From positions 1-50,655 of the IMG/VR virus record IMGVR_UViG_3300037459_000262: 50,655 nucleotides of DNA; one strand, given 5' to 3'. How positions within the stretch are numbered: position 1 is the stretch's first letter; each line of letters begins with the position of its first letter. The position numbers and the translations under genes were made by a program. The stretch is from a virus. The notes below the pieces were generated by a model. The model made no database searches. It saw only the letters and a list, made by a program, of their open reading frames with translations, and was not told the DNA's origin. Shown piece by piece: positions 1,057 through 48,348 of this stretch.

Positions 1057-4000
1057 TCACACGAAGCGTTTGACACTGGTGATAGTTCTTGTGAATCCAC
1101 CTTCTCCTGTTCCAGGTGATGTTAAATTATACTGAATATGCTTCACTACAAGCTTTATTTTTTTGGCACTAGGATTAGTTGAATCATCTTGATCATTTAC
1201 TAGTTGGTCATTTTCAAAAAAGTATCCATCACCAAACTTTAGTGAAAACAGCTCACCGCCAGCAGTCTCTATCTGATATTGTTTTAGCTGGAATTGTTCT
1301 TTTTCAAGTTCTGTCTGTGCATCATTTTGGAGTTGTTTAAATGAAATAATATGTGGTCTTTTTCTAAACTGTGCTTCGAGATTTATGTCAGTATCAGGCT
1401 GACGTGCAATAGCTAAAAGTGGTTTTGTAAAATGAAAATCATCAAGTGTTAGTGCAAGTGTTCCTCCAAAAAGTTTAGCAAGTGAACTATTATTAATATC
1501 AAAATCTAATGCATTACCAGACAAATCAGGTGCAAACCGTCCAAACTCATCATAAAAATTCTGAAGCTGAAATCCTACGAACTGGATTTCTCGAAATGCA
1601 AACCTGTTTACAATTTCAAGCTCCTGTGGTAAAATCAATGAGGCAATATTGTTTAGTTGAAGATCAAAGAATCTAGGCTTTTTTCCTCTGTAAATCTTAA
1701 ATGACGAAAACGGAATCTTTACTGGAAAAAATACATCAACAAAGGGAATCTCTACGTCATAAAATACTGTATTGTCATATCTATCAATCATCCAGATTCT
1801 AACTGTAGTGATTCCGTCAAGTTTTGCATTACTCAGAGTTAGATTTGTAATTTTAATAATTACTGCAATCTCCTGCAGCTGTCCCAAGTCCTCGCTTTCT
1901 GTTTGGTTAAATCCTCTAGTTCCCCTACTAGTCCATGTCATGTTTTGCGTATCAAGAAAGGATGGCTGCAAACTATCTTCACCAAATGCTCCTGATGGAG
2001 TAGCAGTTCCAAAGACATTTCCTACAGTAACTGATGGTGCACCAAAATTATTTGGAGAAAATGGAATACGAAATACAGCCCACGCTCCTTTTTTGAAAAA
2101 ATCACCTACTGGAGTAGTAGAACCAGATAAAAAACGGGTTAGAAAATTACTTCCCATTTCATACTTGAATTCTAAAGCAGAAAAGATGTTTGTAGTAAAT
2201 GGACTTCCATCTTTTGTTACATCTGGATGGTTAGTACTGTCAGTCTCAGCAGGTTTTGGATCAAAGGATTCAGATGATTTTATGCTAGTATATTGATGTA
2301 AACAGTCAACTGCTAAATCACTAGTAACTAAACTCCATGTATCATCGTCATCAGTATTCCACTGATAAATTAAACCATCATCAATTACTACTACCTGCAT
2401 ATTATCAATATCAGTTCCAGTATCTGCTGGTCTGTACTTTACAATCCATTCTTCGCCACTCCATTCAGCAATATTATTTAGAAATGGAATTCCGTTTGAA
2501 TCATTTCCTGTAAATCCCGTTGCAACTCCATCAATTAGCATTCGTCTGCCAACAGGAAACTGGTTCTGCTGTCCTGAATACGCCCATCTATCAGCAGCTA
2601 CTGCTATTGATTCACCACTAGTTACAGATGCAGTTGCAGTAGCTGTTGTTCCAAATGAAGGGGAAGCTATTGTAACAGTTGGTGCAGATGTGTAACTAGA
2701 ACCGCCATCATCTACAGTAATAATAGATACTGCTCCATTAGATAAAATTGCACTTGCAGTAGCTCCATTTCCACCACCTCCACTAAGATTTACAGATGGT
2801 GTAGATGTGTAACCAGAACCGCCATCATCCACAGTAATGAGAATTACACGACCGCCACCATCACTAATCCTAAAGTCTACCCAAGTTCTAAGAAACTTGG
2901 CATCAATTGTATTATCCAATACAACAATGTTAATGTCAAACATTGTAGCACCAAGTTTTCCGTTATCAGTGTCTGGAATAATAGTTTCATTACCGATGAA
3001 CTTTACCTCACTAGGATTAGCACCACAGTTTGCCCATTCCTTTACTTTGTCATCAGTCCATTCTGAATATTGAATTGTATCTCCAAACTCATCGGACATG
3101 TCGATTTGTTCCCAGTTTGTAGGATCACTTGGAGGATTTGGAAATGGAGGATTTGGAGGACTTGTAATATTATTTTTTGCTCGAAAGTGTTTGTTATCTA
3201 GATATTTTACAAGAGAGTCTTTTAGATAGAAAAGCTGATCATTCCATTGTGGTCTAAAAATAAATTGATCAACACCACTTGCATATTTTGAGTGACCTGT
3301 CGGTAGAGAGCCGTGAGTCTGTGATCCCCATGCTGCTACTTGTGTTGCAGTAGCTGCTGCTATTCCTACATCAGTAGAGCCAATATTGACATTAAAAACT
3401 ACATCACCGCTTTCTGGTTGTATAAGAGTTGGAAGTGATGCATCATCATCAAGATCAATACTTCTACCTCCTTGCGAAAATAATGCAATATCTAACTGGT
3501 TAACACTTGGAGTTTCAAAACCCAATTCAAAATAATCCAGTACTCCGCCAAAAGCAACAGAGGAACCAAGCTTGTCAAGCATTTGGTTCCAGCGATTATA
3601 TCCAGTATCCTCAACTAGTCCATATTCATAATGATTAACTGTAAAACTTGGAAAACCATTTCCAACGCCACTTGATTGAAGATAACCAAGTGTATGTTTG
3701 GTTAATACTGGTTGCAGAGAATTTCTGTTGTCATTGTAACTAACTCCAATTTCTCGTGCAACACGAAACGCATCAGCAAAGAAAAATCTTCCTGCAAAAT
3801 TTATTCGCTGTGTATGATATTCTATACCAATTAGATTTAGCTCTAAAATTGTTCCATCAGTTTTGGTCTGTGATGGAACTACAAGTGGATTAAACTCAAA
3901 GAATCGGTTATATGTATTTCCTGCCAAGTCTTCTGCTTGGACTCTAAATCTGTCAAATTGAACAAGTACAGGCTGTGAGCCTTTGGTTGTAATGAAATTA

Positions 4001-14546: not shown

Positions 14547-14911
14547 TATTTTCTCTTAAAGAACCAAACGAATTTTTTGAGGACTCTAGAGAACCAAGAT
14601 TTTGGTTGTGTTTTTTCAATTATCTTTACAACTTTTGGTTTTGTAACTATTTTGGGTAATGTTGGTTTTGTAACTATTTTGGGTAATGTTGGTTTTGTAA
14701 CTATTTTGGTAACTATTTTTTCTTCTTTTACGCAAATTTCTGAAATTGGTGTAGTATCTTCAATTGGAATATCAATTACTTGAGGTTGTGACTCTGTAAT
14801 TTGAGATTCAGAAATTATTGAATCTGGAGGAGGAGGAGGATCTTGTGGTGGATTATTTGTGTTTGCTGTAATGCTTCTGCCTGAGCGTTGTGGCTTGTGT
14901 GAATAAATCAA
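14546..14911 (-). CDS. Tagged Pro-rich protein with KIVTKP repeats, 121 aa
   Basis: TTG start, 3 bp after the previous stop. Residues 1-24 carry the shared tag (MIYSHKPQRSGRSITANTNN, then PPQ), then a run of prolines and an acidic linker. Three copies of a short Lys/Pro repeat (VTKPTLPKI) follow, and a basic amphipathic end (KSWFSRVLKKFVWFFKRK) closes it. Such an end could contact membrane or capsid. Its DNA shows the repeat clearly at 14636-14705. Probable role: virion linker or spike base. No named family was recognised. Confidence 0.65.
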   Translation of the reverse strand: MIYSHKPQRSGRSITANTNNPPQDPPPPPDSIISESQITESQPQVIDIPIEDTTPISEICVKEEKIVTKIVTKPTLPKIVTKPTLPKIVTKPKVVKIIEKTQPKSWFSRVLKKFVWFFKRK

Positions 14912-18130: not shown

Positions 18131-19282
18131 TTAATTATACATTGGATTCTTTTGACTGTTTAACATTTTATCCATGTTTTCAATTTCTGATCTTGCGATT
18201 GCAACCTTGTTTCTCTGATAGTTTGGAAGTGGTTGCACTCCAACAAATGTTTGACTTTGTTGATGAGCTTCTGCAAATCCTTGTAGTGGGGTACTAGGTT
18301 CTGTTGTTTCTCTAAACTTTGCAGTTGCGTTTTGTCGCAATGTATCCAAGTCAAGTTTCATAGAACCATTATTAGTTACTGCTTCTCTTATGTCTACTGA
18401 AAGTTTTTTAATTGCATTTTTTTGATTTACAAATGCCTCTCTTTGTTTTAGAATTGCATCTCTTTGTTGGGAAATAACTCTATTTAGTGGTATTACAACT
18501 TTGTTGTGATATTTTCTCATTTCTTGCTGGACTGTATACTGCATTTGTCTCATCATTTGGTTAGTATCCATTGGTGGTGGTGCTGGCATTCCTGCACCCA
18601 TTTCTCTTGCAATATCAGGCATCAAACCAGCTCCTGCACCCATGTCACCACCCATATTGCCATTGCCGCCCATGTTACCGCCCATATTGCCATTGCCGCC
18701 CATGTTACCGCCCATATTCTGTATAGGTGGCAATCCAGGCACAATCATTCCATTAGTCTCACTCCACTGGTTTACAGTACCATCCATGTCCTGCATTGGT
18801 TTCTCACCATTAGTGGTGTCAACTCCTTGAGCTGGATATGGAGCAACATTATCAGTTGATTGCTCAGAACCGTCTTCTCTTGGTCCGTTATTGTGATTAT
18901 CTAAAACTTCTTCATGTAATTTGTGATCATCTTTATCATCATCTTGCTCATGTAATTTTTTGAAAACATCATCGCCTTCATGTTCTTCATGTAATTTTTT
19001 TTCATTGTTATCATCTTCTTCTTCTTTTAATTTTGGTGCACTAATTCCATCATCTACATCAGGTCCAAGACCAGGATCAGCTTGGTTTTCATCTTCAAGT
19101 TCTTTGATGGCTGACTCCATAAATGAATAAGCATGATTTCTTTGTTGAGGATCAGCGGAGCTTGATAATGCAAGTGCAGTCTCTACTAATTTTTTAACAG
19201 CAGGACCAGCTCCCAATTTAGTTAGAATAGGATCAGCTTGTCCCATAGTAGCACATTCTTGTAATTTTTTAATGAGTCGCAA
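18131..19282 (-). CDS. Scaffold-like protein with GGNMGGN repeats, 383 aa
   Basis: TTG start, late promoter CC pair 29 nt upstream. The order is: a helical N-terminus (~1-60), an acidic stretch with repeated KLHEE/HE motifs (~75-130), a Pro/Gly linker, then repeats of GGNMGGNGNMGGN near residues 195-220, and a coiled coil (~265-310, VVIPLNRVISQQRDAILKQR) before a polar C-terminus. Low complexity, acidity and a C-terminal coiled coil just upstream of the capsid operon suggest a capsid scaffolding protein. The role is inferred. Confidence 0.55.
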   Translation of the reverse strand: MRLIKKLQECATMGQADPILTKLGAGPAVKKLVETALALSSSADPQQRNHAYSFMESAIKELEDENQADPGLGPDVDDGISAPKLKEEEDDNNEKKLHEEHEGDDVFKKLHEQDDDKDDHKLHEEVLDNHNNGPREDGSEQSTDNVAPYPAQGVDTTNGEKPMQDMDGTVNQWSETNGMIVPGLPPIQNMGGNMGGNGNMGGNMGGNGNMGGDMGAGAGLMPDIAREMGAGMPAPPPMDTNQMMRQMQYTVQQEMRKYHNKVVIPLNRVISQQRDAILKQREAFVNQKNAIKKLSVDIREAVTNNGSMKLDLDTLRQNATAKFRETTEPSTPLQGFAEAHQQSQTFVGVQPLPNYQRNKVAIARSEIENMDKMLNSQKNPMYN

Positions 19283-22000: not shown

Positions 22001-22236
22001 TCCCACATGTGCTCCATCTGATTTTTATATCTGGAATACTTTTGATGCCATCTTGGTTCATATTCAAAATGCGGATACGGCATCCAGTCTTTGTCAGGTG
22101 TTTTAACTACACACCAGTTAGAGTTAGTTAGTGTTGCATTTGTAGCTGTACTTGAAAAAGAAAAGATACCATCACTAGTTGATGCTGTGGTATTATTCCA
22201 CCAATTAAAATTGTCATTTGTAAAATCACTACTCAT
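21997..22236 (-). CDS. Small Trp/Tyr-rich protein, 79 aa
   Basis: The frame is open from 22320, but the ATG at 22236 (MSSDFTNDNFNWWNNTTAST) overlaps the portal stop by 8 nt and is the likely start. The C-terminal part is aromatic and basic (PYPHFEYEPRWHQKYSRYKN). It follows the portal gene directly, so a minor head or connector role is possible. No family recognised. Confidence 0.6.
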   Translation of the reverse strand: MSSDFTNDNFNWWNNTTASTSDGIFSFSSTATNATLTNSNWCVVKTPDKDWMPYPHFEYEPRWHQKYSRYKNQMEHMWD

Positions 22237-23923
22237 AGTCTCGTCCCCATCCCCAATCTTGTGATTGATTTGATTGTCTGAAATTTGTTGGAACAAATGG
22301 ATTGCCACTTCCTCTAACATCTCGCATCATAGAGTCATAAATTGGATTGTCCATCGGTGGACTGCCCATAACTTGATTATTAAAAACAGGACCGCCTCCA
22401 ATATCAGCAGTTGGTAGATATGTTCCATCTGCTGTTTTATTTGGCGGTGTAACTATTCCTCCTTGCTCTATTCCTCCTTGGTTTAGTGTTGCATTGCCAA
22501 ATGCTAACTGTCCATGCGGATCATTATACACATTATCAATTGTGACTAGGTAATCCTCGTCAATTGGAAGTCCTGCCTGCTCAAATAATTTGAGAATTTG
22601 TTTAGGATCTTTTGGCATTGGTGATTGCAGGTATAAATCAATTAGCTTTATCATGTCAGCTACTGCTACATCTTTTTTCTCTACTTGTCCAAAGTTCATA
22701 TCAAATCGTGCTAAATGCCAAGGAACTGGAATCATTCCACCATAGTAATTAACATCAAAGAATGGATGTGTATCATACCAAGGCTTGAATAGTAATTCAT
22801 TTAGCTGCTCCCTTACTGAAATTGGAAATGCCGTTAATCCCAACTCATCTAAAAGAGCTGCACGTTCAGCGTTTGCAAATGTATGAGTTGATACTCCAGC
22901 TTGTTTTCCTCTAAAGTCATTTAGTGCTTTGAATAATGGTCCTTGAGTAATATCTGCGAACTGACTTGGATTAAAATTCCTAGCCTGTGATCCTAATTCT
23001 TTTATCTCAACGTTTGTTCCAGAAATAATGTCTTGTCCAATTTGTGCAGACTCTATGTTTGCTTGTAGTGCTGCTCTTTGATCAGCTGATGCACCATCTG
23101 CAATCCAAACATTTCTACTTATGTAACGCTGTTCTGCCATTTGCATTTGAAATTGTGTGGAATACTTTCTGTCAAGCATTGATGGTAATGTAACATCAAC
23201 TGAATCCTCACCATTTAGTGGCATTGTAAATTCACGAGTTGATGTTACTGACACACCAAAGCCTGTACCAAATGGTGATGCGTTAACTGGATTCCATTTG
23301 AAATGCATTACCTCGCCAACATTATGGTACCCTTGATATTCTGGACCTCGGAATTCTAATTTGTATGGCACACGTTGCCTATCAACCCATATTCTTTGAA
23401 ACGATGATATTGGAATATGCATAAGATCTGAGAAATGCTCAACGTTACGAATTCCCATTCTAGGTTTCCAAATAGAATTTCCATACCATAACATTTCCTT
23501 TACTAGTTCTGTATCAAATGTATCAAAGCGAAGGTTTGCAGTAAAATCCTCCATGTACTCTATGAAACTTTCTGAATCTCCTTTGATGTAGTGTTGACCA
23601 CCTGTAACTTTGGATGCTAAATCATTAATTGCAAGCTGTACATCCTCATCTTGTTGTAATGCAACAGCTTGAACATCAAATCTCACGCTAGGTACAAAAA
23701 AAGTTTTTGACGTATAACCTTCACGAGAATATGCACCTACTGTAGAAATTTCAGGTCCCCAAACTGGCTGAGAAAGACCTGGCACCATTTCAGATAACAG
23801 TGTACTATTCATTGTATCTTTGACTAGATTCAGATTCAGCGACCTTGTGGGATGTCTGGCTACATATTCCTCACTGGTAAGAATCTTTGCTAAACCGTTT
23901 CGTAGTCTGGTACCAAATCCCAT
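22229..23923 (-). CDS. Portal protein, 564 aa
   Basis: ATG start, late promoter CC pair 28 nt upstream. Features of phage portals: an N-terminal arm, QALQQDEDVQLAINDLASKV-like helix early on, then YGNSIWKPRMGIRNVEHFSD, followed by PISSFQRIWVDRQRVPYKLE and VMHFKWNPVNASPFGTG. A long helical stem region follows, and a Gly/Asn/Pro-rich tail ends in WGWGRDYE. The portal forms the ring at the capsid vertex through which DNA is packaged by the terminase encoded at 25688. Confidence 0.85.
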   Translation of the reverse strand: MGFGTRLRNGLAKILTSEEYVARHPTRSLNLNLVKDTMNSTLLSEMVPGLSQPVWGPEISTVGAYSREGYTSKTFFVPSVRFDVQAVALQQDEDVQLAINDLASKVTGGQHYIKGDSESFIEYMEDFTANLRFDTFDTELVKEMLWYGNSIWKPRMGIRNVEHFSDLMHIPISSFQRIWVDRQRVPYKLEFRGPEYQGYHNVGEVMHFKWNPVNASPFGTGFGVSVTSTREFTMPLNGEDSVDVTLPSMLDRKYSTQFQMQMAEQRYISRNVWIADGASADQRAALQANIESAQIGQDIISGTNVEIKELGSQARNFNPSQFADITQGPLFKALNDFRGKQAGVSTHTFANAERAALLDELGLTAFPISVREQLNELLFKPWYDTHPFFDVNYYGGMIPVPWHLARFDMNFGQVEKKDVAVADMIKLIDLYLQSPMPKDPKQILKLFEQAGLPIDEDYLVTIDNVYNDPHGQLAFGNATLNQGGIEQGGIVTPPNKTADGTYLPTADIGGGPVFNNQVMGSPPMDNPIYDSMMRDVRGSGNPFVPTNFRQSNQSQDWGWGRDYE

Positions 23924-25389: not shown

Positions 25390-25683
25390 TTGGAATCTAT
25401 ACAACCAGAAAAGCTTGAAACAGAAAAAATGTACGAAGGCATCATACAAGTTTTTGAGAGACTGCACAAGCGATTCATTAGATATGAAAAAGAAAATGAT
25501 GACAACTCACAACCAACACTTGACTACATTACAAAACTTGGTGGCTCTATTGGATATATTGCACAAGTTCACTCTGGACTTGCAAAGGCATACCAACACG
25601 AAAAGAGACTAGCAGACATTGAAAAGAAGCTAGAAAAGATTCCACCAGAGTTACTAAAAGATTTTCTAAAGCCAGGAAGATAG
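25390..25683 (+). CDS. Probable small terminase subunit, 97 aa
   Basis: TTG start set by the promoter 29 nt upstream. The protein is all-helical (MYEGIIQVFERLHKRFIRYE, AKAYQHEKRLADIEKKLEKI) with a Pro-rich end (PPELLKDFLKPGR). It sits 4 bp before the large terminase gene. Small helical proteins in this place are usually small terminase subunits or packaging accessories. No classical helix-turn-helix is obvious, so the call rests on context. Confidence 0.5.
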   Translation: MESIQPEKLETEKMYEGIIQVFERLHKRFIRYEKENDDNSQPTLDYITKLGGSIGYIAQVHSGLAKAYQHEKRLADIEKKLEKIPPELLKDFLKPGR

Positions 25684-25687
25684 ATGC

Positions 25688-27487
25688 TTGCCTGGTTCAT
25701 TTGAGAAAAAGCTAGAAGATATTGAAAAACAAGTATCACCACCTAAAACAAAATCACTAATCACACAACTACCAACTGATCATCTTGAATGGATTAAAAT
25801 TGCTCGCCCCTATGTAGGAAAGATAAAGCGAACCTTTGAGTGGGAACCATTTTGGATTGCTGTGTATAAAGACAAATCACCGAATATCGTTGTTGTTAAT
25901 GGTAGACAATCATTTAAATCAACTTTTGGTACGGATATCATCGGTTGCTATGCAACTAGTCATGCAAACTCTGAGGTCACATATATCGTAGATAGGGAAG
26001 ACCGTGTTTCTGCATGGTCTAAACAGAGATTCAGAAAAGATACAATGCTGCGAAATGAGTTGTTATCGCCATTTCTAATGCATGGTAGGGCAAATGTTGG
26101 AGAAATTAATCTTACAAACAATTCTGTAATTTATGTCAGAACTGATGAGAACGAATTCAATAACGTCCAGGGAATGACAAATAGTTTAATGGTTTTTGAT
26201 GAATGTCAGTACCAAGAGTTACAGTTTCGAGCTGCTGCATTATACTCAATGACAATGACCAAAGGACAGTGTTACTATTTAGGAATTGGTGGGGAAGCTG
26301 GTTCTGAATGGTACAAGTTGTGGAAAAAGTCAGACCAAAATGAATGGAAATTTGATGACAAATATTGGAGAGAGAAGCTAAAATTTGATGATGAAGGGTA
26401 TCTAGCAAACGAGCATCCAGAAAATATTGTTGCAGGAAAGTGGGTTGCAGCATATCCTGAGAATAAAGAATACCGAGGATATCACATGCCTCAAACAATC
26501 TTTGCAAGAATTCCACTAACAATACATGATGCAGTTAACCTATACAAAACAAGACCTGAAAATTCTATAGAGTTTCAAGAAAAATATAATCCCTCAAGTA
26601 TTGTGCAAGCTCACGTATATGGAAATTTCTTCAAGGCAATGCGAAGACCAATCACTCCTGAAATGGTTGAGGCGTGTTATGATTACAATCTTACACTGTT
26701 AACTCCAAAGCAAATAAAGGAACTAAAACAAATACATGAAAACGAGATTCTAATATTTTTAGGAATTGACTGGGGTTCGGGACCAGCTGCATCAAAAACT
26801 GTTGGCACTGTAATAATATACTGGAGAAAGACAAACCGTTACCAAATTGCATGGATTGATTCTAGACCACAAGAACATGAATATGATCAAGCAGCATACT
26901 TTGTTAAACTATACCATGAGTATTGTTGTGATTTTTGTGTAGCTGATTTGGGATATGGTAAAGACAAAGTTACACTAATGCAAAACGGTGGATACACATC
27001 ATTGGGTGAAAAAGTTGTAGGGTTAGGACGGGGACGAGTCAAAGGATGCTGGACATCAGGAAATATTACAACTGAAACAATGAGACATAAAAATCAGGAT
27101 ATAATAGATTCGCCAACTGTAGGTGAGAAAAAAGAACACTATTCAGTTGATAAGACTCAGGTGATTCAGAACTTTATTGATTTTGTTGGCAGTAAGGTTC
27201 CAGATGAGAAAGGCAAACAAGTATCACAGTTAATAATTCCATTCAAAAATGACTGGGAGTGTGACTTTTTAGTTAATGATTTTTGTGATATTACCAGAAA
27301 AGACCTAGACAAAACTAACATGGAGATTAGTAAAGATGACCCAAGACAGAAAGCCAAAAAAGAATACAATCACCCAAAGGATACAGTTATGGCAATTATT
27401 TATTGTATAATTGGTAAAACAAAGTATGATCCAGAAGGATTCCAAATATCTAAAATTAGAGCTAACAGACGATTCAGATATAATTAG
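25688..27487 (+). CDS. terL: Terminase large subunit, 599 aa
   Basis: TTG start (MPGSFEKKLED) preceded by AGGAAG. The ATPase part has a variant Walker A at residues 71-79 (NGRQSFKST) and Walker B at ~166-172 (SLMVFDE). The RNase H-like nuclease domain has the expected acidic residues: D361 in GIDWGSG, D420 in VADLGYGKDK, D565 in HPKDTVMAIIY. The enzyme packages DNA through the portal and cuts concatemers or headful ends. The length is usual for the family. It is the clearest proof that the window is from a tailed virus. It forms one transcript with the small upstream gene. Confidence 0.95.
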   Translation: MPGSFEKKLEDIEKQVSPPKTKSLITQLPTDHLEWIKIARPYVGKIKRTFEWEPFWIAVYKDKSPNIVVVNGRQSFKSTFGTDIIGCYATSHANSEVTYIVDREDRVSAWSKQRFRKDTMLRNELLSPFLMHGRANVGEINLTNNSVIYVRTDENEFNNVQGMTNSLMVFDECQYQELQFRAAALYSMTMTKGQCYYLGIGGEAGSEWYKLWKKSDQNEWKFDDKYWREKLKFDDEGYLANEHPENIVAGKWVAAYPENKEYRGYHMPQTIFARIPLTIHDAVNLYKTRPENSIEFQEKYNPSSIVQAHVYGNFFKAMRRPITPEMVEACYDYNLTLLTPKQIKELKQIHENEILIFLGIDWGSGPAASKTVGTVIIYWRKTNRYQIAWIDSRPQEHEYDQAAYFVKLYHEYCCDFCVADLGYGKDKVTLMQNGGYTSLGEKVVGLGRGRVKGCWTSGNITTETMRHKNQDIIDSPTVGEKKEHYSVDKTQVIQNFIDFVGSKVPDEKGKQVSQLIIPFKNDWECDFLVNDFCDITRKDLDKTNMEISKDDPRQKAKKEYNHPKDTVMAIIYCIIGKTKYDPEGFQISKIRANRRFRYN

Positions 27488-27502
27488 AATAAAAGATTTG
27501 AC

Positions 27503-27554
27503 ATTCAATAATTATTGAATCTCCAATTAAGTATGAATTTTTTATTTGCTTAAT
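27503..27554 (+). promoter_or_regulatory. Promoter with palindromic operator, copy 2
   Basis: The dyad ATTCAATAATTATTGAAT occupies 27503-27520. Directly downstream, a TATA-like TTAAGTA (27527-27533) lies 28 nt from the GTG at 27555. An operator at the upstream edge of the promoter could hold an activator or a repressor for the DGQHR-tas operon. Confidence 0.65.
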
Positions 27555-28421
27555 GTGAGTGAGCAAAAAAGTGTCAGTGTCTACATGCCACCCGAAGCAA
27601 AAATTACAAACCTAAAAAATTTTGATTTAACAAAAATTGAGGAAACATTCCAGTACGCAAGTTTTGAGAGAAGAATATCCAAACACAAAGTTCACACGAT
27701 AGCTCAAGCCATGATGGATAACAAATTTACTGATAATGTCTTACGAGTAGTTACTAGTAACAGTTCTGCAAAGTTTGAGGTACTAGACGGACAACACAGA
27801 ATTGAGGGATTGAGATATGCAAGAGATGAGTTTGGACTGCAAACTTATGATCTTATCATATTTTGTTATCTTGGAGGGAACAGACGAGAAATATATCGTA
27901 GACTTAACTTGGGTAAACCACTCACACTAGCTGATCATCTAAAAGGAATTGATGATGGCAAAAATAATTTCTTTAATTCTCTAAGAGGCGAATGTGACCA
28001 TTATCGAACAGCAGATAAAATGGCATACCAAAATGTAATTAACTGTCTGCATTATGCAAAATCAACATCAATTAGAGCAATAAGACCACTAGCCATTGAT
28101 GACTTTATCTCAGCTACCACACCTCAAGACATTGCAACAGTAAAAAGATTCATTCCAATTTTAAAACAAGTTGCAACAAATCCTGATTCATTATTTTATC
28201 ACTATACTTTATTGAGAAATTACTTTCGTATCTTTTATGAAAATAAATTATCAGTTGATGATATGGTAAAACTTGGTGATGTCTTAAAGAGAGCACCAAA
28301 AATTAGAGAACTAGCTGAAAAACGAGATACTTTTGCAATGAGGGGGATTTATCACTATATCATAGATATTGCAGCACCAAAAGCAAATCTGCAACTATCT
28401 AAAGGGGATGTGAGAAAATAG
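27555..28421 (+). CDS. DGQHR/ParB-like domain protein, 288 aa
   Basis: The GTG at 27555 is chosen because TTAAGTA lies 28 nt upstream; a TTG nine bases earlier is also in frame. Residues 74-88 read FEVLDGQHRIEGLRY, the signature of the DGQHR/ParB-like nucleotide-binding fold. YASFERRISKHKVHTIAQAM precedes it, in the place of the domain's first helix, and YRRLNLGKPLTLADHL follows it. The C-terminal half is helical. Relatives include ParB-type nucleases/CTPases and phage DGQHR proteins. It overlaps the tas gene (stop at 28419-28421 within AAATAG), so the two are expressed together. A role in the RNA-guided system or in DNA modification is possible but not shown. Confidence 0.75.
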   Translation: MSEQKSVSVYMPPEAKITNLKNFDLTKIEETFQYASFERRISKHKVHTIAQAMMDNKFTDNVLRVVTSNSSAKFEVLDGQHRIEGLRYARDEFGLQTYDLIIFCYLGGNRREIYRRLNLGKPLTLADHLKGIDDGKNNFFNSLRGECDHYRTADKMAYQNVINCLHYAKSTSIRAIRPLAIDDFISATTPQDIATVKRFIPILKQVATNPDSLFYHYTLLRNYFRIFYENKLSVDDMVKLGDVLKRAPKIRELAEKRDTFAMRGIYHYIIDIAAPKANLQLSKGDVRK

Positions 28422-29527
28422 CATCTAAAAGAAAGGCTGTTGTAAAAAAACCTAAACCAAAAAAACAGCCAAAGAAAAAACTAGCAAGCAGAAAAGTAGC
28501 ATCAAAGGCACTTGTAAAAAGAAAAACCAAGTCTTCTAGTCGTTCAAATGTAAAAAGCAACATAAAGAAACGAGCTGAAAAAGTACCTACAAAAAAAATA
28601 GCAAAACCAAAAAGAGAAACAAGTGGTGGTGGTGCAGGATCACTTACTCTTAGAATTAAAAAAGAACCAGTCCCAATTCCATTTCCTGATTCAGAAAAAA
28701 TACCGCACTATCTGCTAAGAAATTTAGTAGACATTTACTATGACTTTCAGGGACAACGAATACAGACTCAGCTTAGAATTGGAGCATCAGAGCGAGAAAA
28801 TACATTGAGCAAAGAAGAGTTGTCAATATTTGGAATTACAACAATTATGGAAAATGCCAAGAACTTTGAGTTAGATTTAGAAAAAATTATTAAAAAACAA
28901 TTACTAAACCATGCTCTATACACACAATACTTTGTAAAGATTCAGGGCATAGGACCATTACTCTCAGCTGGACTCATTGCATACATTGATGATATTGAAA
29001 AGTTCAAGCATGTATCATCACTTTGGCAGTACTCAGGATATGGGATGAACAGATATTGTCCAGAATGTAAAAAGCCAACATCTGTTGAAGTCAAATATTC
29101 AACAGGAAAGATTGCAAAGAAACTACATCCATTTGAGAACTGTCCTGAGTGTGGACATGCAACTAATCCCATCTTACAAAAGAGACAGTCAGGATACCAA
29201 TCAAATTGGAATGACAAACTCAAAGTTTTAGCTTGGAAGGCTGCAACATCATTTGTAAAACAATCAGCAACAAAATCAAAGTACAGAAAACTATATGATC
29301 AGATAAAAAAAGATGAGCGAAGAAAGCATCCAACAAAAAAGATAATCAAAGGCAAGACATTCTTTAATGATGGACACATTAATAATCGAGCCATGAGAAA
29401 GGTATCAAAAATATTTTTGGCTCATGTATGGCAGACTTGGCGAAGACAGCAGGGATTGGAAGTAACAGAGCCATATGCAAAACAACTTTTAGGTCACAGT
29501 GTAGTAGAAGCATTTACTGACAACTGA
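28418..29527 (+). CDS. tasA-like: Tas-like Nop-domain protein (TasA type) with zinc ribbon, about 369 aa
   Basis: The frame is open from 28403 but has no ATG, GTG or TTG before 28805. Residues well upstream of 28805 clearly belong to the protein (IPHYLLRNLVDIYYDFQGQR), so translation probably starts at ATA 28418, overlapping the previous stop, or enters by -1 frameshift. Order: a Lys/Arg/Ser tail (1-~75), helices of a coiled coil (~95-170), then the IS110-C-terminal/Nop-like core QGIGPLLSAGLIAYIDDIEK from residue ~176, which contains a helix-hairpin-helix. A zinc ribbon (C214PEC, C242PECGH) is inserted, and a conserved end (HINNRAMRKVSKIFLAHVWQ) closes the fold. No RuvC, HNH or DEDD nuclease motif is visible. 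The 36-bp guide-like array starts just behind the stop, as in TIGR-Tas loci. Confidence 0.8.
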   Translation: MASKRKAVVKKPKPKKQPKKKLASRKVASKALVKRKTKSSSRSNVKSNIKKRAEKVPTKKIAKPKRETSGGGAGSLTLRIKKEPVPIPFPDSEKIPHYLLRNLVDIYYDFQGQRIQTQLRIGASERENTLSKEELSIFGITTIMENAKNFELDLEKIIKKQLLNHALYTQYFVKIQGIGPLLSAGLIAYIDDIEKFKHVSSLWQYSGYGMNRYCPECKKPTSVEVKYSTGKIAKKLHPFENCPECGHATNPILQKRQSGYQSNWNDKLKVLAWKAATSFVKQSATKSKYRKLYDQIKKDERRKHPTKKIIKGKTFFNDGHINNRAMRKVSKIFLAHVWQTWRRQQGLEVTEPYAKQLLGHSVVEAFTDN

Positions 29528-29544
29528 GGTGATGTTAAAAGACT

Positions 29545-31175
29545 TTTGAAACTCAAGGATTAGTTACGAGACTATCATAATGTGTAAACCAAAGAGGGGA
29601 TTCGAGTTAGAAGAAATAATGAAACCGAGTGTATTGTTGCGAGTTCACATGTAGATTAGAAAACCAAGTAATAGATACAAGTCAACACACTTTTGATACC
29701 CAAATAGTGTATACGAGTCAGACTGCGATAGAAAACCAACAAGCATAAACGAGTCAGCACATTTTTGAAAACCATATAGGCCATACGAGTCAGGGGGCTT
29801 TTGAAAACCAAAAAATGGTTACGAGTTACACAAACCATGATACCCAAAAGAAAATTACGAGTCATTTAGTTTGTGAAATCCATCATATAGCTACGAGTCA
29901 GGAGTAATAATTAAAATCAATTAAGGTATACGAGTCAAGCAAATCCTGAAAAACCCATCTAAAGGTACGAGTCATTTTGTTGCTGAAACCCACACATGCA
30001 GTACGAGTCTAAGAAATATGAGACAATAAACGAATGAAAAGAAAACACCAAAACATTTCGAGTCATGTAATTTATGAAATCCAAACTATGCAAACGAGTT
30101 CACTATAGAATGCAAACCCAAAAGTGGTCTACGAGTCAACATACTTTTTGAAACCATATAGGCAAACGAGTCATTTAGTTAGTGAAATCCATCATATAGA
30201 TACGAGTTATAGTGGTTATGGAATCCAAACATTCCTTTCGAGTCACCTCTCATGTGAAATCCAGAAAAAGTATACGAGTCACGAAATGTGTGAATCCCAC
30301 AGTATGATTGCGAGTTATCATAGACCAGAAAACCAAAAAAGATGTACGAGTCTAATTCTTATTGAATACTATTCAATAGATACGAGTTACCATAACTTTG
30401 AAACCCATTGAAGAAGAATTGAAGAAGAACGAGATAGCGTGAATGTGAAATCCATGTAAGCACTTCGAGTCACTCTTGTCATGAAATCCAGATGATGCAA
30501 ACGAGTCAGGGAGGCATTTGAAACCAAAAAGGCGATACGAGTTATGAAATACTGAAATCCATGTTAAAGGTACGAGTCTTAGAGATTTTGAAAACCATAA
30601 GAAGAAAGCGAGACATTGAATGGTTGAAACCCACATGCAAGGTTCGAGACAAAAAAACCGAGAAAGCCAATAGACAAGATCGAGTCAGTGCACTTAAAGA
30701 AAACCATAATAAAATTACGAGTCACGAAATGTGTGAATCCCACAATATGATTGCGAGTCAATGTACTTATGAAACCTATACATGGATAGAAATGAGTCAA
30801 CTAAACCCTGAAATCCACATAGCTTGTACGAGTTAGAATCTGTTTGAATCCCACGAATCTCATGCGAGTCATCTTACCGATTGGAAACCAGTATTTAGAT
30901 ACGAGTCAAAGTAAGAGTAAAAAACAAGAACGTTTTACGAGTCAAAATACAATTGAAACCAAGAGAAAAGAAGCGAATCAAATATACCCTGAAATCCAAT
31001 GCACATGTATGAGTCACTGATGTAATGAAACCCACATAATGCAAACGAGTTCAAGTTGTCTATGAAAACTAGAAAATGCATACGAGTCCTTATTCATTTG
31101 AAACCAAGAAGATGAAAGCGAGTCAGCCATGTTTTGAAACTCATTAGTGTAATGCGAGTCAACGTACTCTTGGAC
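29545..31175 (+). repeat. TIGR-like array: about 44 units of 36 bp with two boxes and two 9-nt spacers
   Basis: Forty-five box copies of the form NACGAGTCA recur from 29567 to 31155. Most intervals are exactly 36 bp, some 35 or 37. Halfway in each unit lies a second box, TGAAANCCA. The unit is thus four 9-nt blocks: box 1, spacer A, box 2, spacer B. Example at 29857: TACGAGTCA, TTTAGTTTG, TGAAATCCA, TCATATAGC. Spacers differ from unit to unit, with a few near-copies. This is the build of TIGR arrays, which are processed into 36-nt tigRNAs used by Tas proteins. Orientation is given as that of the tas gene, which it follows by about 18 bp; transcription direction is not proven. It fills the convergent gap 29528-31214, where no gene is supported. 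Confidence 0.88.
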
Positions 31176-40299: not shown

Positions 40300-40830
40300 C
40301 CAAAAAAAAAATTTTTATTTATCGCTGAGTCAAAAAACAAAATTTTTCAAGCTCAATGAAGCTCAAAACAAAATTTTAGCTAGTCATAAAATCAAAAAAT
40401 GAATTTTTATCTACTCATACAAACCTAAAACAAAATTTTAGCTACTGTATGAGCTAAAAAACAAAATTTTAAGTTATCACAAAATCTCAAAACAAAATTT
40501 TTCAATCAGGCCAGGAGCTAATAACAAATTTTTATGATTAGGAACAACCACAAAACAAATTTTTTCAAACTCATAAAATCAAAAAATGAATTTTTACCTA
40601 CTGTATAAGATGAAAAACAAAATTTTTGATCCTTATAAAATCACGATTTTAATTTTTTACATATACACGCAGCATCAAAACAATTTTTTAAGAATACACG
40701 CAAGCTCAAAACAAAATTTTAGGTTTACATGCGAGCTCAAAAAAATTTTTCAAAAGCACTAAAAAATTTTCGTGGGTAGACAAAATTAGAAATCAAATTT
40801 TTTAAAGCACGTAAACGAAATTTTTAATTT
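40300..40830. repeat. A/T-tract array with about 31-bp period
   Basis: About 17 tracts of the form CAAAACAAAATTTTT recur through this gene-free stretch (40254-40931). Steps between T-tract starts are mostly 29-34 bp (31, 31, 29, 34, 30, 31, 31, 31, 31, 32, 30...). Thirty-one bp is close to three helical turns, so the tracts face the same side and should bend the DNA. Sequences between tracts vary, with a few repeats (CATAAAATCAAAAAATGAA twice, at ~40385 and ~40572). It resembles bent-DNA origins, partition sites or transcription insulators. Confidence 0.65.
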
Positions 40831-47526: not shown

Positions 47527-48348
47527 ATGAAAACACAACAAATTGAAAAAGAAATTGAACACATGGATGAAATAGTTTTTTCAGAAAGCTCCAATACTGT
47601 TCAAGTCGGTTTTACTACTGACAAAAATACATTATTACAAATATCAAAATCAGTTGAATTATTAAAAGAAAATGATGCTACATTTACCCTTGATGAGGAA
47701 GGAATTAGTTTTCGTGGAATGGATCATTCTCATGTTGCATTAATTGATATTGGAATTCCAAATACTTGTTTTGAGAAATATTCATGTATTGAAAAACAAA
47801 AATTTGGAGTAAACATTATAGAATTTAGAAAATTAGTTTATTCTCTAGATAATAAAGGCAGTATTTCTTTAATTATCAAAAAAGAAGAAATTCTAATTTC
47901 ACAAAACGGTTTTAATGCAAAAATCAAACTTTTAGAACCAAGTGAAAAAGATTGTCCATTACCTCATATTTCATATGATGATAGTATGGTTATATTTTCA
48001 CCAGAACAAAATACAAATGCCATTGAATTTAAAAAAATTCTTGCAAAAATAAATACAATATCAGACCATATCACAATTAATTGTGATGATTCAAGAATTG
48101 TTTTTAGTGGTAGTGGTGATAGTGGCAATGCAGAAAAAACAATTGATAGAGAAGAATGTGAAATAAATAATAAAGAAGATTCTGAGACTACATACGGATT
48201 AGAGTTTATTATGGCATTTTTGAAAACTTTGTCAAAAAATTCTAATGTTGAATTAGGATTTAGTAAAGAAAGACCATTGAGGCTGCAAACAAAAATTAAT
48301 AATTTGGGTAGAATTGACTTTTACCTAGCACCAAGGGTTGAATACTAA
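47527..48348 (+). CDS. PCNA-like sliding clamp, 273 aa
   Basis: ATG behind early promoter 3. Two-domain clamp features: an N-terminal domain with SKSVELLKENDATFTLDEEG and ISFRGMDHSHVALIDI (the D..H..L motif of PCNA), the linker region around residue 120, and a C-terminal domain with ITINCDDSRIVFSGSGDSGN, GLEFIMAFLKTLSKNSNVEL and the terminal RIDFYLAPRVEY. Slightly longer than usual archaeal PCNA (~250). It should encircle DNA and hold replication proteins encoded elsewhere or by the host. Confidence 0.92.
   Translation: MKTQQIEKEIEHMDEIVFSESSNTVQVGFTTDKNTLLQISKSVELLKENDATFTLDEEGISFRGMDHSHVALIDIGIPNTCFEKYSCIEKQKFGVNIIEFRKLVYSLDNKGSISLIIKKEEILISQNGFNAKIKLLEPSEKDCPLPHISYDDSMVIFSPEQNTNAIEFKKILAKINTISDHITINCDDSRIVFSGSGDSGNAEKTIDREECEINNKEDSETTYGLEFIMAFLKTLSKNSNVELGFSKERPLRLQTKINNLGRIDFYLAPRVEY

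What the first reader, a model, noticed from the sequence alone, without database searches (positions are those of the whole stretch)
28418..31175. TIGR-Tas-type RNA-guided system in an archaeal head-tailed virus
A Nop/IS110-C-terminal-type protein gene is followed at once by about 44 units of exactly 36 bp, each made of two conserved 9-nt boxes (NACGAGTCA, TGAAANCCA) and two variable 9-nt spacers. This is the build of TIGR arrays (36-nt tigRNAs, dual spacers) and their Tas proteins, a family described in 2025 from phages and parasitic bacteria. Seen here: array geometry, gene adjacency, protein motifs. Inferred: that the array is transcribed and guides this protein. The archaeal viral setting and the box sequences may be new.
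Basis: partly seen in the sequence, partly recalled or inferred. Interest (0 to 1): 0.97.

Follow-up and report, generated by a model that had tools for sequence, protein, structure and literature searches.

The report
Archaeal-virus TIGR-TasA guide-RNA locus
A virus that probably infects Nitrososphaeria archaea carries a long row of tiny paired guide-RNA genes next to the gene for the protein that should carry them; this is a clear new member of the TIGR-Tas family published in 2025, with guides shared among sister viruses whose targets are still unknown.

Summary
The 28418-29527 protein scores 169.6 bits against NCBIfam's curated TIGR-Tas family (cut-off 100) and matches the solved TasR (9mty, E 7e-30) and TasH. 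It has only the Nop domain, with a zinc-ribbon-like insertion and a lysine-rich tail, so it is a TasA type. The array has 44 edge cores; 30 of 43 intervals are exactly 36 bp. The strongest new evidence is compensatory change across the unit boundary: base 7 of one edge pairs with base 2 of the NEXT edge (197 of 206 units; null 160), while the same positions within one edge show nothing. This is the signature of a mature guide RNA running from mid-edge to mid-edge with paired ends. Thirteen related viral contigs carry the same tasA; twelve also show an upstream ParB-like gene. Many spacer pairs are shared between viruses. Neither archaeal viruses nor TasA-ParB operons are new for this family (Faure et al. 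2025, PMC12045711). Transcription and DNA binding are inferred. No target was found in the virus, its relatives, or sampled Nitrososphaeria genomes. Verdict: a well-supported new member of a known kind.

The parts
28418..29527 (+). tasA: Nop-domain-only Tas protein (about 369 aa) with K-rich N-terminal tail (residues 1-85), Nop halves (about 100-211 and 250-362) and a Cx2C...Cx2C zinc-ribbon-like insertion (about 213-250)
   Evidence: NCBIfam NF052498 169.6 bits vs cut-off 100; 9mty TaTasR E 7.4e-30 and TasH E 1e-10; no nuclease domain found in Pfam. Start codon not settled: ATA at 28418 is the only near-start at the conserved position.
27546..28421 (+). ParB-like / DGQHR-domain protein gene, overlapping tasA by 4 nt; conserved partner
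   Evidence: phrog_1033 ParB-like E 3.4e-4, TIGR03187 DGQHR E 0.004 below cut-off; present upstream of tasA in 12 of 13 related contigs, the 13th (L005/L015) being cut off upstream
29529..31175 (+). TIGR dual-repeat array: 44 edge cores (consensus TACGAGTCA), loops TGAAANCCA, spacers A and B mostly 9 nt; degenerate first unit (GTGATGTTA...TGAAACTCA) at the 5' end
   Evidence: E7-E'2 covariation, 38 of 39 units paired in the window
25390..25683 (+). small conserved gene at the head of the same-strand gene run
   Evidence: syntenic and 69-87% identical in relatives
25688..27487 (+). terminase large subunit, immediately upstream of the ParB-tasA-array cassette
   Evidence: phrog_675 E 7.7e-28; syntenic in most relatives, but separated from the cassette in L019

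Best explanation
This is a TIGR-TasA system of an archaeal head-tailed virus. The ParB-like gene, tasA and the array lie in one direction and are most simply read as one transcript (inferred). The array transcript is cut in the middle of each edge repeat into RNAs of about 36 nt whose 5' and 3' half-edges pair (pairing shown by covariation; cutting inferred from TasR/TasA data in PMC12045711). [quoted passage not shown] Lacking a nuclease, it would block or bend its target rather than cut it, perhaps together with the ParB-like protein, most likely to hinder or regulate another mobile element in the same host (inferred, target unknown). The confidence given is for the TIGR-TasA guide-RNA-protein part; for two-strand DNA targeting I would say 0.75, for action against a rival element 0.45.
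For: Curated TIGR-Tas family hit above cut-off; TasR and TasH as the only convincing PDB matches, for the protein and for the profile of 13 sequences. Array geometry far above chance. E7-E'2 is the top of 351 position pairs in an unbiased scan (MI 0.426; next best 0.122), also in the window alone and after removing repeated spacers: every A7 (17) faces T2 and every C7 (10) faces G2 of the next edge; positions 7 and 2 of the same edge copy show MI 0.016, equal to null. E6-E'3 also covaries (G-C 199, A-T 4). These are the box C/D pair and the extra edge pair described for TasR (PMC12045711). Spacer pairs are inherited as pairs between viruses (79 cross-contig near-identical pairs, null 7.1, maximum 18).
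Against: No expression data. No target was found: no excess of A + gap + rc(B) sites in this virus or its relatives; the two most conserved pairs gave 0 and 1 match in 250 genomes of the family of G355 and chance-level hits in IMG/VR (two further pairs). DNA as the target of a TasA is not shown here. No terminator-like site after the array, whereas the published arrays typically end in one. The AlphaFold model is of low confidence (pLDDT 50).
Confidence: 0.9

Rival explanations
1. The protein and array work on RNA, like archaeal box C/D sRNPs: the two short spacers pair with cellular or viral RNA and the Nop protein recruits a host enzyme.
For: Nop fold and box C/D logic are shared with C/D sRNPs (PMC12045711); no DNA target found; a weak, sub-threshold SNORD62 match inside the array (24.7 bits, gathering 39).
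Against: Protein is closest to TasR/TasH, which act on DNA; TasR did not act on RNA (PMC12045711); no Nop5-like N-terminal domain; the Rfam hit has E 0.24 and spans more than one unit.
Confidence: 0.07
2. IS110-type transposase remnant with a repeat array unrelated to it.
For: Pfam PF02371 (IS110 C-terminal part) is the best Pfam hit, just under its cut-off; NCBIfam IS110 24.7 bits against a cut-off of 140.
Against: No DEDD domain; conserved in 13 viral contigs, most of them with an array close by; TIGR-Tas model scores far higher; compensatory pairing across units.
Confidence: 0.02
3. A decaying or non-functional array kept by chance.
For: Some units are degenerate (around 30004-30059 and 30402-30430) and the first unit lacks a good edge.
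Against: 197 of 206 units keep the E7-E'2 pair through compensatory change; Nop protein conserved across contigs; shared spacer pairs.
Confidence: 0.03
4. The guides regulate the virus's own or the host's genes rather than a rival element.
For: Spacer pairs are shared between different viruses and some copies are duplicated within one array, as expected for fixed rather than changing targets; the G355 array shows a weak excess of sites in its own genome bin (gaps 0-1, up to 1 mismatch: 7 against 1.4).
Against: No excess in this virus or relatives; no excess for the second genome with its own array, G045; one conserved pair absent from 250 genomes of one family; the G355 excess was found among many gap settings and includes a tandem repeat.
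Confidence: 0.3

Closest known systems
TIGR-TasA, dual-repeat array type (Faure et al. 2025, PMC12045711)
   Same: Nop-only protein, array of two alternating short repeats with 9-nt spacers, units near 36 bp, box C/D-type pairs, virus-borne, degenerate first edge; TasA-ParB operons are reported there too
   Different: Longer array (44 edges against most often 5-15 units), other loop/edge sequences, zinc-ribbon-like insertion and lysine-rich tail in the protein; the edge box C/D pair itself varies with compensation from unit to unit, whereas the paper calls it absolutely conserved in TasR arrays; no terminator-like site found after the array
TaTasR of a Thermoproteota archaeon (PDB 9mty)
   Same: closest solved sequence; both halves of the Nop domain align; 9+9 spacers
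   Different: TaTasR has an N-terminal RuvC nuclease that this protein lacks; it lacks the insertion at about 213-250
TasH (PDB 21kl and others)
   Same: Nop domain aligns (E 1e-10)
   Different: HNH nuclease in TasH; spacers total 16 nt in SpTIGR
Archaeal box C/D sRNP (Nop5)
   Same: fold class and box pairing logic
   Different: no significant sequence match here; guides RNA methylation; K-turns and L7Ae/fibrillarin partners
IS110 transposase / bridge RNA
   Same: C-terminal domain related (PF02371, sub-threshold)
   Different: no DEDD domain, guide array instead of one bridge RNA

Membership tests
TIGR-Tas | Tas-type Nop-domain protein | tested here: met
   NF052498 169.6 bits vs cut-off 100; 9mty E 7.4e-30
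TIGR-Tas | Adjacent array of two alternating 8-12-nt repeats with 9-nt spacers | tested here: met
TIGR-Tas | Box C/D pair in loop and edge, the edge pair formed between neighbouring edge copies | tested here: met
   loop G2-C7 in 194 of 206; edge E7-E'2 paired in 197 of 206 with compensatory changes; same-edge control null
TIGR-Tas | Truncated edge at the 5' end of the array and truncated edge plus terminator at the 3' end | tested here: inconclusive
   degenerate first unit seen and shared by relatives; no terminator-like site found, but archaeal terminators are not covered by that scan
TIGR-Tas | Array processed into 36-nt RNAs bound by Tas | not testable with these tools
   covariation fits the mid-edge to mid-edge RNA; no RNA data
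TIGR-Tas | Tandem-spacer targeting of both DNA strands | not testable with these tools
   target searches found no enriched sites
TasA subtype | No nuclease domain | tested here: met
   no RuvC or HNH hit in Pfam; N-terminal 85 residues are a lysine-rich tail
TasA-TasParB operon | parB-like gene operonised with tasA | tested here: inconclusive
   ParB-like/DGQHR gene overlaps tasA and is conserved, but matches are weak and identity with the published TasParB could not be compared; no PDB match
IS110 transposase | DEDD catalytic domain | tested here: not met
   only the C-terminal part matches, below cut-off
CRISPR array | single repeat of about 25-36 nt with long spacers, and cas genes | tested here: not met
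   two 9-nt repeats alternate; no defence-library hit in the four neighbouring proteins scanned

The most novel reading that the evidence does not exclude
A ParB-like protein and a nuclease-free TasA form an inherited guide-RNA module of a lineage of Nitrososphaeria viruses that keeps a partly fixed set of guide pairs across species, i.e. it silences a constant set of sites (host or rival element) rather than acquiring new immunity spacers. This would be the first TIGR system known to me with an evolutionarily conserved target list that can be read from its guides.
Probability: 0.25. Interest if true: 0.8.

Novelty: new member of a known kind. Interest (0 to 1): 0.5.

Why it matters
TIGR-Tas was described in 2025 with its natural targets, its spacer origin and the role of nuclease-free TasA left open. 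This locus adds a lineage of archaeal viruses in which tasA, a ParB-like gene and the array travel together, and in which dozens of guide pairs can be compared between relatives. The compensatory changes across unit boundaries give sequence-only support for the mature RNA ends, independent of any expression experiment, and the conserved guide pairs give concrete sequences with which natural targets can be searched as databases of archaeal viruses and plasmids grow.

Tried and rejected
Self or sister-virus targeting: guide pairs against this virus and 13 relatives, several geometries, gaps -3 to 12; the one raised A-rc(B) count (gap -2) came from one pair hitting the same tas stretch in seven sequences. 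Host targeting: two conserved pairs in 250 genomes each; the one hit (G058) is single and lies outside the listed reading frames of at least 80 aa. G355 (888 kb) and G045 (1.04 Mb) genomes against their own arrays: weak post hoc excess for G355, none for G045. Four conserved pairs against IMG/VR: hits collapse to a few unrelated lineages at chance level. An idea that spacer variation follows codon third positions with a 2-bp gap gave P 0.03-0.07 and was not supported by the hits. AlphaFold of TasA: pLDDT 50, not used for a fold search. A genome-contig search with the Tas profile found nothing.

Full report
WHAT IS THERE. On the + strand at 25390-31175 lie, in one direction, a small gene, the terminase large subunit, a ParB-like gene, a Nop-domain gene and a repeat array; structural genes run the other way from 25189 downwards. 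The record is a 50,655-base virus record with an archaeal/eukaryotic-type sliding clamp at 47527-48348, which supports an archaeal host; the terminase resembles those of tailed phages.

ARRAY. The pattern CGAGTYA-9N-TGAAANCCA, with 3 mismatches allowed, is found 36 times against 3.05 expected, and self-similarity peaks at multiples of 36. There are 44 edge cores; 30 of the 43 intervals are exactly 36 bp, the rest 35-39 with two longer degenerate stretches (47 and 55) (positions). Edge consensus TACGAGTCA, loop consensus TGAAANCCA.

PROTEIN. The frame gives 369 residues. NCBIfam's curated TIGR_Tas_endo model scores 169.6 bits against a cut-off of 100 (171.3). In the PDB only TasR (9mty, E 7.4e-30) and TasH (E 1e-10) match convincingly, and the profile of 13 sequences gives the same two. 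There is no nuclease domain, so despite the model's name this is a TasA. A CPEC...CPEC insertion sits between the two halves that align to TasR.

COVARIATION. I extracted 206 units from the window and related contigs. Position 7 of an edge and position 2 of the next edge form T-A 149, T-G 21, A-T 17, C-G 10, and only 9 non-pairs; 197 paired against 160 +/- 3 in shuffles, MI 0.447 against 0.021. The same positions within one edge copy are at null (MI 0.016). In an unbiased ranking of all 351 position pairs this pair is first, and E6-E'3 is third; it stays first in the window alone and after removing units with repeated spacers. Units related by descent are not independent, which is why the deduplicated and window-only results matter. 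This is the pairing seen in the TasR structure between different edge copies of one processed tigRNA (PMC12045711). In the more distant array of G355 the same two positions also rank first, but not with standard pairs, so the rule is not universal.

RELATIVES. Thirteen IMG/VR contigs carry the gene (twelve of them in alignment A1, 66-90% identical to the window; the other, L013/L021, is a disrupted or cut copy). The ParB-like gene precedes tasA in twelve; the thirteenth contig ends too early to tell. In L019 the terminase is distant and only 45% identical while the ParB-like protein and TasA are 59% and 78% identical, which suggests that the pair moves as a cassette. A 49%-identical tas with a roughly 50-unit array lies on a 9.7-kb contig of a genome bin of the class of a Thaumarchaeota bin (G355), and a more distant one with its array on a 123-kb contig of G045. 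Distant homologues of the 22229-23923 protein occur in 9 of 400 genomes of that class. A Nitrososphaeria host is therefore likely but not proven.

SPACERS. Across contigs, 79 unit pairs differ at no more than 4 of 18 spacer positions, against 7.1 after shuffling partners (maximum 18); differences are mostly transitions (96 to 58), and the order of shared units is scrambled between arrays, unlike the polar growth of CRISPR arrays. One pair occurs in eight viruses. Targets were sought and not found (see Tried and rejected).

START CODON. The window and six relatives (L002, L003, L004, L010, L011, L013) lack ATG/GTG/TTG at the start of tas and share an ATA overlapping the ParB-like stop, most of them preceded by AAAGGRG or a near form; L006-L009 instead have TTG within the ParB-like gene. 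The sequence alone cannot tell an AUA start from a frameshift.

WHAT IS KNOWN. Faure et al. 2025 (PMC12045711) define TIGR-Tas, state that TIGR loci occur in archaeal viruses, that TasA is the commonest effector, that some tasA genes lie in operons with a parB-like gene, and that targets, adaptation and TasA's function are open. Nothing tested here falls outside that frame, so I file it as a new member of a known kind.

HOW IT LIKELY WORKS. Shown: gene, array, pairing, conservation. Inferred from TasR and TasA experiments in that paper: processing, dimeric RNP, two-strand DNA pairing. Inferred without direct support: blocking of a rival element's DNA, role of the ParB-like partner.

Noticed in passing
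28403-28421: No ATG/GTG/TTG start for tasA; an ATA overlapping the upstream TAG (AAATAGC) is conserved in the window and six relatives, while others use TTG inside the ParB-like gene. AUA initiation or -1 frameshifting are both possible.
   Followed up: partly
40330-40750: AT-rich imperfect tandem repeats of 31/62 bp, possibly origin-like iterons.
   Followed up: no
47527-48348: PCNA-type sliding clamp, only distantly related to the clamp of halovirus CGphi46.
   Followed up: no
L018:13199-13975 and L019:1679-2389: Second, diverged copies (28-35%) of the ParB-like gene away from tasA.
   Followed up: no
L185 (G355:C7), about 1450-3300: TIGR-Tas locus with about 50 units, loop TGAARAACA and edge CGAGTCA, in a Nitrososphaeria genome bin; weak excess of A+rc(B) sites in the same bin.
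   Followed up: partly
L174/L259 (G045:C2:10229-13582): Another TIGR-Tas locus on a 123-kb contig: edge AGCGAGCCA, loop AGATACCCA, 27 units parsed; no own-genome targets found.
   Followed up: partly
30275 and 30718; 29858 and 30167: Duplicated units within the window array that differ by one or a few spacer bases, suggesting growth by internal duplication and mutation.
   Followed up: partly
14635-14709, 18639-18718: Short tandem repeats of 27 and 30 bp inside genes of the structural side.
   Followed up: no
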